Shown here piece after piece: positions 4,440 through 8,697 of a stretch of 64,000 nt of DNA. The notes below the pieces were generated by a model. The model was not told the origin of the DNA. It did not search any database and saw nothing but the letters and a program-made list of their open reading frames with translations. The stretch is taken from the NCBI RefSeq assembly GCF_000332195.1, contig NZ_KB235922.1, positions 1,054,001 to 1,118,000 of the forward strand. The letters run 5' to 3'. Positions within the stretch are counted from its first letter, which is position 1, and each line of letters opens with the position of its first letter. The DNA is from Pleurocapsa sp. PCC 7319 (GTDB taxonomy: Bacteria; Cyanobacteriota; Cyanobacteriia; Cyanobacteriales; Xenococcaceae). Made by a program: the position numbers and the translations under genes.

Positions 4440-5021
4440 ATGAATAAAAAAAATGTTACAAGACTCCAAAAAATCGAGTCAATTTTTGAAACAGTTATTT
4501 GGAACTTTCGATTTTTTATCTTAGCTCCAGTTATCTTCAGTTTACTCAGTGCTTTGCGCTTCATTATTATTGGCACCTTAGATATTTGGTCTGGTCTCAT
4601 TTTGGGATTTGATCCGCAAGAGGCTGGAAGGGCAACAACTTTAAAGATAGTTTCTTATCTTATTGGCGGTGTAGATTATTATTTAATTGGCATTGTTTTA
4701 TTTATTTTTGCCTTTGGTATATATGAATTATTCATCTCAGAAATCAACATTAGGCGTAAAAATAATTCTAGTATTTTGCAGAGTCACACCTTAGAAGAAC
4801 TCAAAGTTAAATTAGTAAATGTAATTGTAGTGGCTCTAATTGTTAGTTTATTTAAGCAGATGCTTAACTTAGATGTTCAACAAGTAAGCGATGTAATTTA
4901 TATTGCATCAGCAATTCTACTCATTTCGATTAGTCAATACTTGCTACACTTAAATTATAATAGTCCCAAGAATCAACAGACAATAATCAAGAATAATCAT
5001 CATGATTCTTCCGATCTTTAG
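4440..5021 (+). CDS. YqhA (UPF0114)-family membrane protein
   Basis: Integral membrane protein of 193 residues. Its N-terminal segment IESIFETVIWNFRFFILAPV is typical of the YqhA/UPF0114 family. Four hydrophobic segments are visible, at about residues 20-48, 78-102, 121-140 and 150-166. The family is widespread and has no established biochemical function. Start ATG at 4440 follows an AT-rich leader with no strong ribosome-binding site. It ends 12 bp from the stop codon of the convergent cupin gene. Confidence 0.75.
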   Translation: MNKKNVTRLQKIESIFETVIWNFRFFILAPVIFSLLSALRFIIIGTLDIWSGLILGFDPQEAGRATTLKIVSYLIGGVDYYLIGIVLFIFAFGIYELFISEINIRRKNNSSILQSHTLEELKVKLVNVIVVALIVSLFKQMLNLDVQQVSDVIYIASAILLISISQYLLHLNYNSPKNQQTIIKNNHHDSSDL

Positions 5022-5033
5022 AAAATACCAATT

Positions 5034-5525
5034 TTAATTTTTGATATTTTCTAGTGGGGCAAAACTTTTAGCATTTGACGTATCATAGATTTCTATATTT
5101 TCGCCACGACGAAGCATTCGCTTACCTAGACGAGGAAAGTCCGCAATCTCAAAATTAAGATTTTCTCCACCCATTAGATAAACTAACTCTTCGTTAAAAG
5201 GATTGCGTAGATGATGTGCTACAGATGGTGTGGGAAATCCCATAAAATCTCCTGCACCGACTTCAAATTCCTCACCGTCAATTTCCGCAATCCCTCGACC
5301 TGAAATAATATAAATCCACTCTTCTTCTCGGTCGTGAGAATGATAGATAAAAGATTCTTTGCTAGATGGGATTTTGGCAAGACTTACACCTACCCTTTGT
5401 AGCCCTGTCAAACGACTTATTTGAGTTCCATGAATGGATGAGTTAGGATTCCAGGGGTGAGAGAAACTAACTTCTTGTTCGGCTATTTCATTAGCCCGTA
5501 AAAGATAAGGGGATTTCTCAGTCAT
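5034..5525 (-). CDS. Cupin-domain protein
   Basis: Small single-cupin protein (163 residues). The first cupin motif is visible as H62, H64 and E68/E69 followed by the glycine turn SGRG, and the second as PSVAHHLRNP with H104/H105. These residues would bind a metal ion in a beta-barrel. The N-terminal half (HPWNPNSSIHGTQISRLTGL) is shared with uncharacterised cyanobacterial and proteobacterial cupins. Substrate and reaction are unknown. It converges with the YqhA-family gene, and its promoter side faces the IS200/IS605 element. Fold assignment is firm; function is not assigned. Confidence 0.75.
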   Translation of the reverse strand: MTEKSPYLLRANEIAEQEVSFSHPWNPNSSIHGTQISRLTGLQRVGVSLAKIPSSKESFIYHSHDREEEWIYIISGRGIAEIDGEEFEVGAGDFMGFPTPSVAHHLRNPFNEELVYLMGGENLNFEIADFPRLGKRMLRRGENIEIYDTSNAKSFAPLENIKN

Positions 5526-5612
5526 ATCAATATTTACGCTTCCTCGCTATTTATTATTATGCCAATTCTGGAAAATAGCTGAAGAAACCGACAGGCTACT
5601 GACAATAAACAC

Positions 5613-5643
5613 AAAAAAAGGCGTTGTGCCCATTGTAAACGCC
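5613..5643 (-). terminator. Rho-independent terminator of tnpB
   Basis: On the reverse strand a GGCGTT...AACGCC stem (5638-5643 with 5620-5625) is followed by seven T residues (5613-5619). It lies seven bases past the tnpB stop codon and would end the tnpB / guide-RNA transcript. No T run follows the stem on the forward strand, so it is directional. Confidence 0.7.
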
Positions 5644-5649
5644 TATGAA

Positions 5650-7119
5650 CTACCCCAACTTTGCTGACGCGGAAGTTGGGGTTTCCAACTCCTCGGCACT
5701 AAGTCGAGATTTTTGACGTTTCATCTGCCCAAGTTGCTTCATCGAGCCAGTATGCTTGCGCTTACTAGTCAAGGAAGTAGAGCTTAGACATCCACTGTCT
5801 AAGAGATGCGTCCCACACCCCTGTTGCTGGTTTGTAGCAACATTATACATGACAAGAACAGAACCCTTGTCACGTTCAATTTCAAAAGTACAGTTATCAC
5901 AAACATGATAGCGATTAGACAAGTCAGCCCAGTTCTTATGCACAATTCCGCATTTTGGGCAGCGTTGACTAGGTTTGACTCTTCGCGTGTTTAATTGAAG
6001 TAGCAAACCGCCTTTGGCTTCAATTTTGTAAGCAATCATTTGGTTAAGAGTGCTGAAGCCAACAGAAAGAATAGACTTATTAAGTCCTGCTTTCTGTTTT
6101 TTTCGTTTGCCACCTTGTCTTGGTGCGCGTTCCCTAGCGTCGTGAGACGACGCGGGGTCGCACCGCTTTTTTGCCCTTCGGACGGGCGTGGAATAAGCTG
6201 CTTGCGAAGCAGCATTTCCGCCCGCTTTGCGTGTCAAGCCTTTGGTATTTAGCTTTTCAGTTACCCCGATGTCATGACGACTTGCTATATCTGAGGTAAT
6301 TTTATGCTGCCAATCAGCACGTTGCAATGCCACTTTGCGCTGTAATTTTGATACTCGTCTTCGCGCTTTTTTCCAACGATTAGAGGCTTTTATACCTTTC
6401 TTTCTATTTGGTGCGCGTTTTCTTCTGAGTTTTTTTGATTCTTGCTTGACTTTCTCTTCTGCTACTTGAGTAAAACGAGGATTAGATATTTCTTCAAACT
6501 TTATACCATCAAAGCAAGTGATAGCAGTAGCAGTACCCAAATCAAAAGCAACTATTGACTCATATTTCAAATCTGAAACAGAACCAAACTTTGCCTCTTT
6601 GACTGAAACATTACAAGTAAAACTAGCAAACCACTGTTTTTTACGTGGCTTATAAACAATGGTTAACGTAGTTGGAGTACACCAAGATTTTGCTTGTCCT
6701 CTCATTTTTAGGGTTATGCCTAAATCATTAAGAGTAACTGTGCCATGTTTACCATTAGTAGACGTTTTCCATCCAGATTTAGAACTGTACGTCCAGCCTG
6801 AATAATTTCTAATTGACTTGAAATTAGGTAAACCCCTCAGTCCTTTAAAGAAAGAATTATAGGCTAAATCAACCCGTTTTACTGTTGACTGTAAAGCTTG
6901 AGAATGAAGATGAGCAAATTCTACCCATTCTTTTTTGAATGCTGGTAAACAATTTTGCTGTTGGAAATAGTCAACAGTTTTTTGATTTTTCTTCCACTCA
7001 AAACGGCGATGAGCGATACAGGCATTATAGAGATACCCATGAAGACGACGAGCAGCAAACAATTCTCTTTCTTGAGTTTTGTTTGGGTACAGCCGAAATG
7101 TGTATCTTCTTAGTGCCAT
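5650..7119 (-). CDS. tnpB: TnpB RNA-guided nuclease of IS200/IS605, with in-frame insertion
   Basis: TnpB proteins are RuvC-type endonucleases guided by a transposon-encoded RNA; they are ancestors of Cas12. Visible are the N-terminal MALRRYTFRLYPNKTQ, the first RuvC aspartate in VAFDLGTATA, the glutamate in GVTEKLNTKG, a zinc finger CPKCG...CDNC, and the last RuvC aspartate in EIERDKGS. Length is 489 residues, longer than the usual 370-420. About 36-38 extra residues sit between LTRKA and KRKKQKAGLNKS. They are encoded by a GC-rich nested palindrome at 6120-6225 that keeps the frame. The C-terminus extends some 55 residues past the catalytic region. Its 3' end overlaps a strong hairpin, as expected if the guide RNA derives from this end. 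Whether the enlarged protein is active is unknown. Confidence 0.88.
   Translation of the reverse strand: MALRRYTFRLYPNKTQERELFAARRLHGYLYNACIAHRRFEWKKNQKTVDYFQQQNCLPAFKKEWVEFAHLHSQALQSTVKRVDLAYNSFFKGLRGLPNFKSIRNYSGWTYSSKSGWKTSTNGKHGTVTLNDLGITLKMRGQAKSWCTPTTLTIVYKPRKKQWFASFTCNVSVKEAKFGSVSDLKYESIVAFDLGTATAITCFDGIKFEEISNPRFTQVAEEKVKQESKKLRRKRAPNRKKGIKASNRWKKARRRVSKLQRKVALQRADWQHKITSDIASRHDIGVTEKLNTKGLTRKAGGNAASQAAYSTPVRRAKKRCDPASSHDARERAPRQGGKRKKQKAGLNKSILSVGFSTLNQMIAYKIEAKGGLLLQLNTRRVKPSQRCPKCGIVHKNWADLSNRYHVCDNCTFEIERDKGSVLVMYNVATNQQQGCGTHLLDSGCLSSTSLTSKRKHTGSMKQLGQMKRQKSRLSAEELETPTSASAKLG
5653..5681 (-). repeat. Subterminal hairpin at the tnpB 3' end (element end / guide-RNA scaffold)
   Basis: A perfect 9-bp stem, CCCCAACTT with AAGTTGGGG, with an 11-base loop, overlaps the last ten codons of tnpB. 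In IS200/IS605 elements such a hairpin near the tnpB end serves as a transposase recognition structure and lies in the region from which the TnpB guide RNA is made. This role is inferred from position. Confidence 0.55.
6120..6225. repeat. GC-rich nested palindrome inserted in tnpB
   Basis: The stretch contains several perfect stems: GGTGCG (6122-6127) with CGCACC (6159-6164); inside it GCGTCGT (6137-6143) with ACGACGC (6147-6153); then GCTGCTT (6197-6203) with AAGCAGC (6207-6213), the last framed by GGGCG-GGAA and TTCC-GCCC. It is far more GC-rich than its surroundings and accounts for the extra residues of this TnpB. It resembles the mobile palindromic repeats known from other cyanobacterial genomes. 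Confidence 0.7.
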
Positions 7120-7144
7120 CTGTGATTTAATAGATTTACTGTTT

Positions 7145-7180
7145 CAGTCGATAAGATAAATCATATCATAATCAGTCGAT
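7145..7180. promoter_or_regulatory. Direct repeat CAGTCGAT between tnpB and tnpA
   Basis: The octamer CAGTCGAT occurs at 7145-7152 and again at 7173-7180, 28 bp apart, within the 64-bp divergent promoter region of the two transposon genes. The second copy ends three bases before the tnpA start codon. It could be an operator or a fragment of the transposition machinery; no protein is known to bind it. Confidence 0.35.
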
Positions 7181-7183
7181 GTC

Positions 7184-7603
7184 ATGTCAACTAAGCTAAG
7201 AAAAGCTTCACACTCTATTTTTTCTATTCACTTGCATGTTATTTTTGTGACTAAATATCGTCGCAAAGTTTTGACTAGGGCAATGATTGAGGATGCCAAA
7301 AAAGTATTTCAAAGAATTCTAGAATCTAACTACTCAATTTTGTCTAACTGTGAAGGCGAAGCTGACCATTTGCACTTGCTTATTGACTTGCATCCAAATA
7401 ACAATATTTCTAATTTGGTATCCTCTCTCAAATCGGCGAGTAGCAGAATTTTGAGAAAAAAATATTCTCAGGAAATAGCTCAACACTACTGGGGCAAAAA
7501 TGCTAAGTTGTGGCATGACTCAAAGTGCATTATTTCTTGTGGAGGCGTACCATTAGAAGTCATCAAACAGTATATTGATAATCAGTCAGGTGGAAAAGAA
7601 TAG
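7184..7603 (+). CDS. tnpA: TnpA, Y1 HUH single-strand transposase of IS200/IS605
   Basis: A 139-residue IS200/IS605 transposase that excises and integrates single-stranded DNA. The core is complete: HVIFVTKYRRKVL near the N-terminus, the metal-binding HUH motif in DHLHLLIDL, and the catalytic tyrosine in VIKQYIDNQ near the C-terminus. Length matches the family (about 130-150). Start ATG at 7184 lies 64 bp from the divergent tnpB start. No frameshift or lost active residue is visible, so the element may still be mobile. Confidence 0.93.
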   Translation: MSTKLRKASHSIFSIHLHVIFVTKYRRKVLTRAMIEDAKKVFQRILESNYSILSNCEGEADHLHLLIDLHPNNNISNLVSSLKSASSRILRKKYSQEIAQHYWGKNAKLWHDSKCIISCGGVPLEVIKQYIDNQSGGKE

Positions 7604-7628
7604 GTAGTCGCTTCGCGGTTTATTGCTG

Positions 7629-7674
7629 GTCGCGATTCATCCCTAACCTATAGAGAATAGGGAATTCTCGCGAC
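7629..7674. repeat. Subterminal hairpin at the tnpA side of the IS200/IS605 element
   Basis: An outer stem GTCGCGA (7629-7635) with TCGCGAC (7668-7674) encloses an inner CCCTA/TAGGG stem, all just downstream of the tnpA stop. Imperfect hairpins of this kind are what TnpA recognises as single strands. The cleavage site would lie a little outside it. Confidence 0.6.
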
Positions 7675-7713
7675 ATTACGTTAAAATAAATCAAGGATGA
7701 TTAGTAATCAGAG

Positions 7714-8697
7714 TTAAATTCTTCCTTCCATCATTTTTTGTACAGCTTCCGCAATTTGTTCTGGCTGTACAATAGTTAATCTTTCTAATGTGCCGTTATA
7801 AGGGGTAGGAATATCCTGAGAAGATAAACGCAACACTGGTGCGTCCAACTCGTCAAATAGTTGCTCATTAATTAATGCCACTAGCTCAGCACCAATGCCC
7901 CCAGTTTTCATACATTCTTCGACAATGATAACCTTATGAGTCTTACGTACTGACTCACTGATGGTTTCCATGTCAAAAGGTTTAAGGGAAATTAAGTCAA
8001 TAATTTCTGGGTCGTAACCATGTTTTTCAATAGTTTTAAGTGCTTGAGTACAGTGATGACGCATCCGAGAATAGGTCAAGATTGTGACATCTTTTCCTTT
8101 TCGTACCATTTCGGCCTTGTCTAAAGGCAATACATACTCATCATTTGGCAGATCGTCCTTAAGGTTATAAAGCAATACATGCTCAAAAAACAGTACTGGA
8201 TTATCGTCTCTTATAGCTGCTTTTAATAAACCTTTAGAGTTATATGCTGTAGAACAGGCAACTATTTTTAAGCCTGGAACAGCATGGAAATAGGCTTCAA
8301 GCCTTTGGGAATGTTCTGCACCCAACTGCCTACCTACTCCACCAGGACCACGGATCACCATCGGAATCTTGAAATTTCCTCCAGAGGTGTAGCGTAGCAT
8401 CCCGGCATTATTGGCAATTTGGTTAAATGCCAACAGTAAAAAGCCCATGTTCATCCCTTCGATTATGGGACGTAAGCCAGTTAAAGCTGCACCCACAGCC
8501 ATCCCACAAAAGCTATTTTCCGCAATTGGAGTATCTAATAAACGTAGATCTCCATATTTCTTATACAGGTCTTTGGTGACTTTATAAGAACCACCATAAT
8601 GTCCGACATCTTCACCCAAGACGAAGACAGTTTTATCTCTTGCCATTTCTTCGTCGGTCGCTTCTCTCAAAGCGTTAAACATTAAAGTTTCAGCCAT
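7714..8697 (-). CDS. pdhB: Pyruvate dehydrogenase E1 component, beta subunit
   Basis: Beta subunit of the thiamine-diphosphate-dependent E1 enzyme, which decarboxylates pyruvate and passes the acetyl group to lipoamide on E2. The 327 residues begin [20 protein letters not shown] and contain [18 protein letters not shown], the conserved [15 protein letters not shown] segment, and a transketolase C-terminal domain with [12 protein letters not shown]. Length and pattern match cyanobacterial and plastid PdhB. No pdhA, odhB or lpd lies nearby, in keeping with the scattered pdh genes of cyanobacteria. It is divergent from the TldD/PmbA-like gene. ATG at 8695-8697 is the obvious start. Confidence 0.95.

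What the first reader, a model, noticed from the sequence alone, without database searches (positions are those of the whole stretch)
6120..6225. GC-rich palindromic repeat inserted in frame into a TnpB gene
The tnpB carries about 36-38 extra residues between two otherwise contiguous conserved blocks, and the DNA there is a set of nested perfect stems. The insert keeps the frame and does not remove any RuvC residue or the zinc finger. A selfish palindrome living inside another selfish gene without destroying it is notable, and the extra segment lies between the second and third RuvC motifs.
Basis: partly seen in the sequence, partly recalled or inferred. Interest (0 to 1): 0.55.

Follow-up and report, generated by a model that had tools for sequence, protein, structure and literature searches.

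The report
Palindromic repeats lodged in TnpB's lid
Two different small palindromic repeats, each exactly 51 bases long, sit in frame in a flexible loop beside the active site of a jumping gene's RNA-guided DNA cutter, and related bacteria show that this same loop has caught such repeats several separate times, giving a natural test of how much this loop can grow.

Summary
The tnpB at window 5650-7119 (-) carries 34 extra codons soon after the RuvC-II glutamate (E288). They are two unrelated palindromes, each a net 17 codons (51 nt): B (6173-6223) and A (6115-6165). RuvC residues and zinc-finger cysteines are intact. Both are dispersed repeats: A has 9 exact-pattern copies in this genome and up to 81 in relatives (36 of 100 genomes searched), with paired stem changes. 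The three closest paralogues lack A and B but carry a third 51-nt palindrome, C, in the same loop; a cousin (G022) has none; three distant TnpBs carry A there. On a tree of 148 TnpBs the four A-bearing genes need four separate changes. By alignment to ISDra2 TnpB the site lies in the RuvC "lid". A also sits in frame in TnpA, other TnpB loops, Ddl, ribonucleotide reductase, CobN and PKS genes, so these are protein-coding palindromes like Rickettsia RPEs, in cyanobacteria, with TnpB's lid a recurrent landing place. Outside the home family, about half of the sampled A copies lie in IS genes, suggesting carriage by them. The mobiliser is unknown; RAYT is not supported. TnpB activity is untested.

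The parts
5650..7119 (-). tnpB of an IS200/IS605-type element, 489 aa, intact RuvC triad (D193, E288, D417) and zinc-finger cysteines (C387, C390, C407, C410)
6115..6165 (-). palindromic element A, 51 nt, net 17 extra codons (RCDPASSHDARERAPRQ); hairpin core 6122-6164; edges could shift by a few bases because the flanks are purine-rich
   Evidence: dispersed in own genome and relatives
6173..6223 (-). palindromic element B, 51 nt, net 17 extra codons (GGNAASQAAYSTPVRRA); its 3' part can also form a second small hairpin
6088..6258 (-). the lid loop with its inserts: from E288 (RuvC-II) to just before the helix that starts at residue 345; pLDDT under 50 over residues 291-311 and 313-354
   Evidence: lid boundary at ISDra2 P282 from PMC11844463 (passages)
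7184..7603 (+). tnpA (IS200/IS605 Y1 transposase), divergent from tnpB, 139 aa

Best explanation
These are protein-coding palindromic elements: small dispersed hairpin repeats that work like the Rickettsia palindromic elements. At least three unrelated families (A, B, C) gave inserts of a net 51 nt, so the reading frame was kept. Two of them (B, A) landed in the disordered, lysine-rich lid loop of this TnpB soon after the RuvC-II glutamate, where 17-34 extra residues seem to be tolerated. Shown: the inserts, their dispersed copies, the empty and differently filled sites, the repeated independent hits on this loop, the intact catalytic residues, purifying selection. Inferred: that the element moves as single-stranded hairpin DNA; that the loop is a hotspot because it is both an AAG-rich target and structurally permissive; that the protein still cuts; and that A-like elements travel between species inside IS genes.
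For: Empty site and rival fillings at the same loop (102 distinct loops, baseline TRKAKKGSKRKKQKAGLN). Exactly +17 codons for A in L022, L023, L088, L190 and L272a against relatives without A. A core is 33 nt in 93 of 97 distinct sampled copies, intergenic ones included, and 34 nt in 4. Copies show paired stem changes. Tree of 148 TnpBs: 4 A-bearing rows = 4 changes. Palindromic inserts fall in profile columns 295-307 in 6 of 10 events (p 1.5e-7 under a uniform null), and in 3 of 7 without the window and its paralogues (p 9e-4; 6.5e-3 if the loop is taken as 26 columns). The loop is predicted disordered. dN/dS about 0.16; window branch 20 synonymous and 7 nonsynonymous codons. A in frame in other genes: Ddl, CobN, ribonucleotide reductase, CobW_C, PKS, TnpA, TnpB. 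Seven copies of one IS in G063, six of them 93-98% identical to the seventh over about 1.2-1.4 kb, all carry A in tnpB.
Against: No transposase or target duplication was identified. Resident RAYT genes exist, but the one in A-rich G007 is flanked by a different, GTAG-type repeat, not A, B or C. The idea that the elements are stop-free in all frames failed (3, 5 and 4 open frames; no better than shuffles). A by-eye 'RQ' scar in paralogue L010 and in L027 could mean that A was once there and lost, so the number of gains versus losses is not settled. G347's A (L107) is a net +13, not +17, codons. The hotspot test has ascertainment bias (search seeded from this gene) and a crude uniform null. L022's A folds only at z = -1.8 and counts by family identity. 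Part of the window branch predates the inserts, so purifying selection after insertion is not isolated.
Confidence: 0.83

Rival explanations
1. The segment is an ordinary lineage-specific loop extension of TnpB, with the palindromy a by-product of codon usage.
For: The loop does vary in length by a few residues among relatives.
Against: The same DNA recurs outside tnpB in intergenic DNA and other genes; A is read in different frames at different sites; closest paralogues and cousins lack it.
Confidence: 0.03
2. The loop only looks like a hotspot because elements prefer AAG-rich DNA (target preference), with no special structural tolerance.
For: Most A insertions in TnpB coding DNA follow an AAG/AAA-rich stretch and precede AAG; two other TnpB sites with a KK context were also hit repeatedly: L081/L239, L082 and L243; L088, L190 and L278.
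Against: A also sits in quite other contexts (TTGACGAGC..., TGAGGAAA... flanks); C and B have other flanks yet also landed in this loop.
Confidence: 0.3
3. The gene is a dead carrier: the inserts inactivated TnpB and it is drifting.
For: Two of the three paralogues in this genome are broken; the paralogue on C5 even has a 43-nt, frame-breaking C.
Against: Window copy is open over 489 codons with all catalytic residues and low dN/dS; a G063 IS with A in tnpB has several near-identical copies.
Confidence: 0.2
4. RAYT-mobilised REP/REPIN elements of the GTAG class.
For: Short hairpins, dispersed, mostly intergenic in A-rich G007; RAYT genes over the cut-off in 3 of 4 genomes searched.
Against: No GTAG tag next to A; the G007 RAYT is flanked by GTAGGGTGGGC repeats and none of the A, B or C motifs lies within its 3.4-kb locus; the A-rich genome G018 (66 copies) has no RAYT over the cut-off.
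Confidence: 0.1

Closest known systems
Rickettsia palindromic elements (RPE; Ogata et al. 2000, 2002, known here from reviews)
   Same: Dispersed palindromes found both between genes and in frame inside many unrelated protein genes; hosts include housekeeping enzymes
   Different: Those are described as about 105-150 bp in an alphaproteobacterium (PMC2229807, PMC10969869, passages); these are 51 nt, in cyanobacteria, sequence relatedness not tested, and several families hit one loop of a mobile-element nuclease
GTAG-/CGTC-tagged REPs, including intragenic ones (PMC3733652; section 15 and passages read)
   Same: Small hairpins, mostly intergenic, some inside ORFs; recB of two Xanthomonas species hit at about the same site; cyanobacterial families GTAG-12/15/16 exist
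   Different: No GTAG or CGTC tag seen at A; consensus sequences of GTAG-12/15/16 are in a figure I could not see, so identity with B or C was not excluded
Small dispersed repeats (SDR) of Nostoc (Elhai et al. 2008; paper not read, known from its citation in PMC3116915, and recall)
   Same: Very small mobile repeats in cyanobacteria
   Different: Not compared by sequence; A, B and C could prove to be relatives
ISDra2 TnpB (PDB 8h1j, 8exa, 8bf8)
   Same: Same nuclease fold and RuvC/zinc-finger layout
   Different: ISDra2 has no such insert; here the lid carries 34 repeat-encoded residues

Membership tests
Protein-coding palindromic elements (RPE-like kind) | Palindromic, dispersed copies in intergenic DNA and within genes | tested here: met
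Protein-coding palindromic elements (RPE-like kind) | In-frame insertion in otherwise conserved genes, with an empty site in relatives | tested here: met
Protein-coding palindromic elements (RPE-like kind) | Host protein expressed and still active | not testable with these tools
   only indirect: purifying selection
Rickettsia RPE families proper | Sequence relatedness to RPE families | not tested
   no RPE sequence was fetched
GTAG REP / REPIN (RAYT-associated) | GTAG tetranucleotide beside the hairpin | tested here: not met
   flanks of 54 distinct A copies show AGCGGT, TGACGAGC, TGAGG and similar edges; B and C not tested in the same depth
GTAG REP / REPIN (RAYT-associated) | Copies flank a RAYT gene | tested here: not met
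   4 RAYT loci scanned: no A, B or C copy, one lone A-end-like string in L307; repeats of L305 and L306 are of another type
TnpB RNA-guided nucleases | RuvC D/E/D, zinc finger, OrfB_IS605 and TNB domains | tested here: met
TnpB RNA-guided nucleases | Guide-RNA-dependent DNA cleavage | not testable with these tools

The most novel reading that the evidence does not exclude
Frame-neutral palindromes use IS200/IS605 (and other IS) genes as vehicles to cross between cyanobacterial lineages, and their repeated landing in TnpB's lid extends the switch that gates RuvC, tuning the RNA-guided nuclease rather than merely being tolerated.
Probability: 0.15. Interest if true: 0.8.

Novelty: new variant of a known kind. 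Interest (0 to 1): 0.52.

Why it matters
It shows protein-coding palindromes at work in cyanobacteria and names a recurrent landing site: the lid of an RNA-guided nuclease, a loop whose length is otherwise reported to be similar across TnpB, Cas12 and Fanzor (medians 20-22 aa; PMC11423790, passages). Natural TnpBs with 0, 17 or 34 extra lid residues are a ready series for testing how lid length controls cleavage. It also offers a concrete way in which tiny non-coding repeats may spread between species: inside IS genes that they do not break.

Tried and rejected
Stop-free-in-six-frames idea: rejected. RAYT as mobiliser of A: not supported. GTAG tag: not found at A. Rfam family in 5000-8000: none at gathering score. 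Vertical inheritance of A at the lid site: disfavoured, since each A-bearing TnpB has nearest relatives without it. A guide-RNA role of the palindromes was not pursued, as they lie far from the 3' end where the guide RNA of TnpB is made (recalled). The 12-bp direct repeat TTGGTGCGCGTT at 6120 and 6408 looks like coincidence: the second copy encodes the conserved KRAPN motif. A plasmid search gave matches at 68-76% identity in 5 records, no help in naming the host. Literature: searches listed no paper on palindromes inside TnpB or on these families; most subscription papers are not held, so this is weak evidence of absence.

Rows dropped before counts: the 191 profile rows became 173 distinct ones. 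Left out of the 6-of-10 count: inserts without a strong hairpin (L024, L176, L193, L058, L061, L141, L190 at column 96) and distant TnpBs L042, L043, L045, L048; L175 and L183 (one genome) were counted as one event; L022 was kept by family identity in spite of z = -1.8. Not all listed TnpB places were fetched: searches took 80 of them, leaving out most identical copies (G304, G077, G186 and others). In the second count (7 changes for any lid insert) L011 was scored as empty although it carries C, so that count is too high; I rely only on the A count.

Full report
WHAT IS THERE. The window holds an IS200/IS605-type pair: tnpA at 7184-7603 (+) and tnpB at 5650-7119 (-). TnpB is 489 aa with all the catalytic and zinc-binding residues expected from alignment to ISDra2 TnpB. 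In the reading direction of tnpB, after VTEKLNTKGLTRKA (E288 is the RuvC-II glutamate by alignment with ISDra2; role recalled), come GGNAASQAAYSTPVRRA (17 codons), KK, RCDPASSHDARERAPRQ (17 codons), then GGKRKKQKAGLN. Relatives read TRKAKKGSKRKKQKAGLN or close to it here. Across 102 distinct loop sequences this short form is the rule. The net insert against the family profile is 34 codons.

TWO DIFFERENT PALINDROMES. The first 17 codons are element B, the second element A; each adds 51 nt. A folds at z = -3.8 and B at z = -2.2. The whole insert region folds at z = -2.3.

THEY ARE DISPERSED REPEATS. The stretch hits 10 places in its own genome, itself included. A strict pattern for A finds 9 copies there, with none for the reversed control, and copies in 36 of 100 genomes (own included), with 81, 66 and 59 in the three richest. 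Stem bases change in pairs among copies. The core is 33 nt in 93 of 97 distinct sampled copies and 34 in 4. B's pattern is rarer: 12 copies in 10 of 60 genomes. A third element, C, has 17 copies in 8 of 60 genomes.

SAME LOOP, DIFFERENT FILLINGS. Three paralogues in the same genome, about 90% identical in DNA, have neither A nor B but carry C in the same loop, 17 codons again in L010, a few codons downstream. One of them is intact (478 aa) and two are broken. The G022 relative (84% in protein) has no insert. Two TnpBs only about 50% identical, in G007 and G021, carry A at exactly the same place, and a fourth, in G347, carries A five codons further on in another reading frame (net +13 codons). 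Each of these has near relatives without A; on a FastTree tree of 148 TnpBs, built without the loop columns, the four A-bearing rows need four changes. G038 (L024) and G148 (L176) have other repeat-like inserts in the loop whose folding is not significant. Of the palindromic inserts found in this TnpB set, 6 of 10 lie in 13 of 428 profile columns; without the window and its paralogues 3 of 7 do. The others are at columns 122 (L175/L183), 134 (L132), 240 (a second palindrome in L023) and 410 (L101).

THE LOOP. The AlphaFold model (mean pLDDT 62.7, only nine sequences) has pLDDT under 50 for 291-311 and 313-354, between the RuvC-II strand (284-289) and the next helix (345-368); its best structural match is ISDra2 TnpB 8h1j. 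[quoted passage not shown] the window insert begins a few residues past the one aligned with ISDra2 position 284. I therefore place the inserts in the lid. Lids are reported to have similar lengths in TnpB, Cas12 and Fanzor (PMC11423790, passages).

NOT ONLY TnpB. A also lies in frame in D-Ala-D-Ala ligase and CobN (G007), ribonucleotide reductase (G019), a CobW C-terminal domain (own genome), PKS genes (G067, G017, G007), PIN and Uma2 genes, and IS200 TnpA. Several other TnpB sites were hit: KK|G[FY]P in L081/L239, L082 and L243; the LSKK site before the EKARKKV helix in L088, L190 and L278; two antisense copies in one TnpB (L272); one between the zinc-finger cysteine pairs (L266). Intragenic palindromes of this sort are known from Rickettsia RPEs (PMC2229807 and PMC10969869, passages) and occur with some REPs (PMC3733652, section 15).

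IS GENES AS CARRIERS? By tblastn, A lies inside an IS200/IS605 gene in 3 of 9 copies of the own genome, in 4 of 59 sampled copies of other genomes of the same family (0 of the 30 sampled in G007), and in 12 of 42 sampled copies outside the family. Outside the family, two more copies (L082, L243) are in TnpB by BLASTP, and eight are in one DDE transposase of G037 (Pfam was run on one of the eight, the others match it by blastn across the A site), giving 22 of 42. Against this, none of 7 sampled copies in G074 and none of 5 in G076 lie in such genes. In G063 seven copies of one IS, six of them 93-98% identical to the seventh, all carry A in tnpB. This fits carriage by IS elements, but the sample was taken from listings, not at random.

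IS THE WINDOW TnpB ALIVE? dN 0.048 and dS 0.306 against the paralogue; on the window branch 20 synonymous and 7 nonsynonymous codon changes, on the sibling branch 19 and 6. This is purifying selection, though part of the branch predates the inserts. Activity was not tested.

HOW IT MIGHT MOVE. Unknown. RAYT genes exist in this clade (over the cut-off in 3 of 4 genomes; the one in the own genome is decayed), but in A-rich G007 the RAYT is flanked by GTAGGGTGGGC repeats and no A, B or C motif lies in its locus. A is often nested in other hairpins, its own kind included (L199, L207, L216; L227 in a B-like arm), which suggests insertion into single-stranded hairpin loops (inference). An AAGACA string typical of A's right edge is present in paralogue L010 and, in part, in L027; this could be a scar of in-frame loss.

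VERDICT. The kind of thing is known from Rickettsia; new here, as far as my searches show, are the cyanobacterial families with net 51-nt inserts, the repeated independent hits on the lid of an RNA-guided nuclease, and a hint of carriage by IS genes.

Noticed in passing
L199, L207, L216, L218, L219, L222 (A core at 1501-1533 of each): A cores nested inside the arms or loop of another A-type palindrome; L227 has A inside a B-like arm.
   Followed up: partly
L080 and L232-L238 (G037): Eight copies of a DDE-type IS transposase carry A at a KK site; in the two listed ORFs the frame ends right after A, yet the IS is present in eight copies.
   Followed up: partly
L272:520-1815 (+), G022: One open TnpB (432 aa) carries two A palindromes in antisense orientation, both in frame.
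   Followed up: partly
L220:912-2144 (-), L206:2-3031 (+) (G007); L263:2-1831 (-) (G019): A in frame inside D-Ala-D-Ala ligase, CobN and ribonucleotide reductase genes; whether these are the only copies in those genomes was not checked.
   Followed up: no
L305 (G007:C1:2994912-2995364), L306 (G023): Intact RAYT genes flanked by GTAGGGTGGGCA-type REPs, a separate repeat system in the same genomes.
   Followed up: partly
L175 about 657-741 and L183 about 654-738 on the reverse strand; L132; L023 about 2031-2109: Further palindromes in frame at other TnpB positions: a C-like one (GAAAAGTC...AACTTTTC), GGGGCATACA...ACAGCCCC and GGACATATCAAG...CTTGTCC.
   Followed up: partly
L024 (G038) lid loop; L176 lid loop: Lid inserts built of CTTCGGCAAGCTCAGGG-like repeat DNA, another repeat family; folding not significant.
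   Followed up: no
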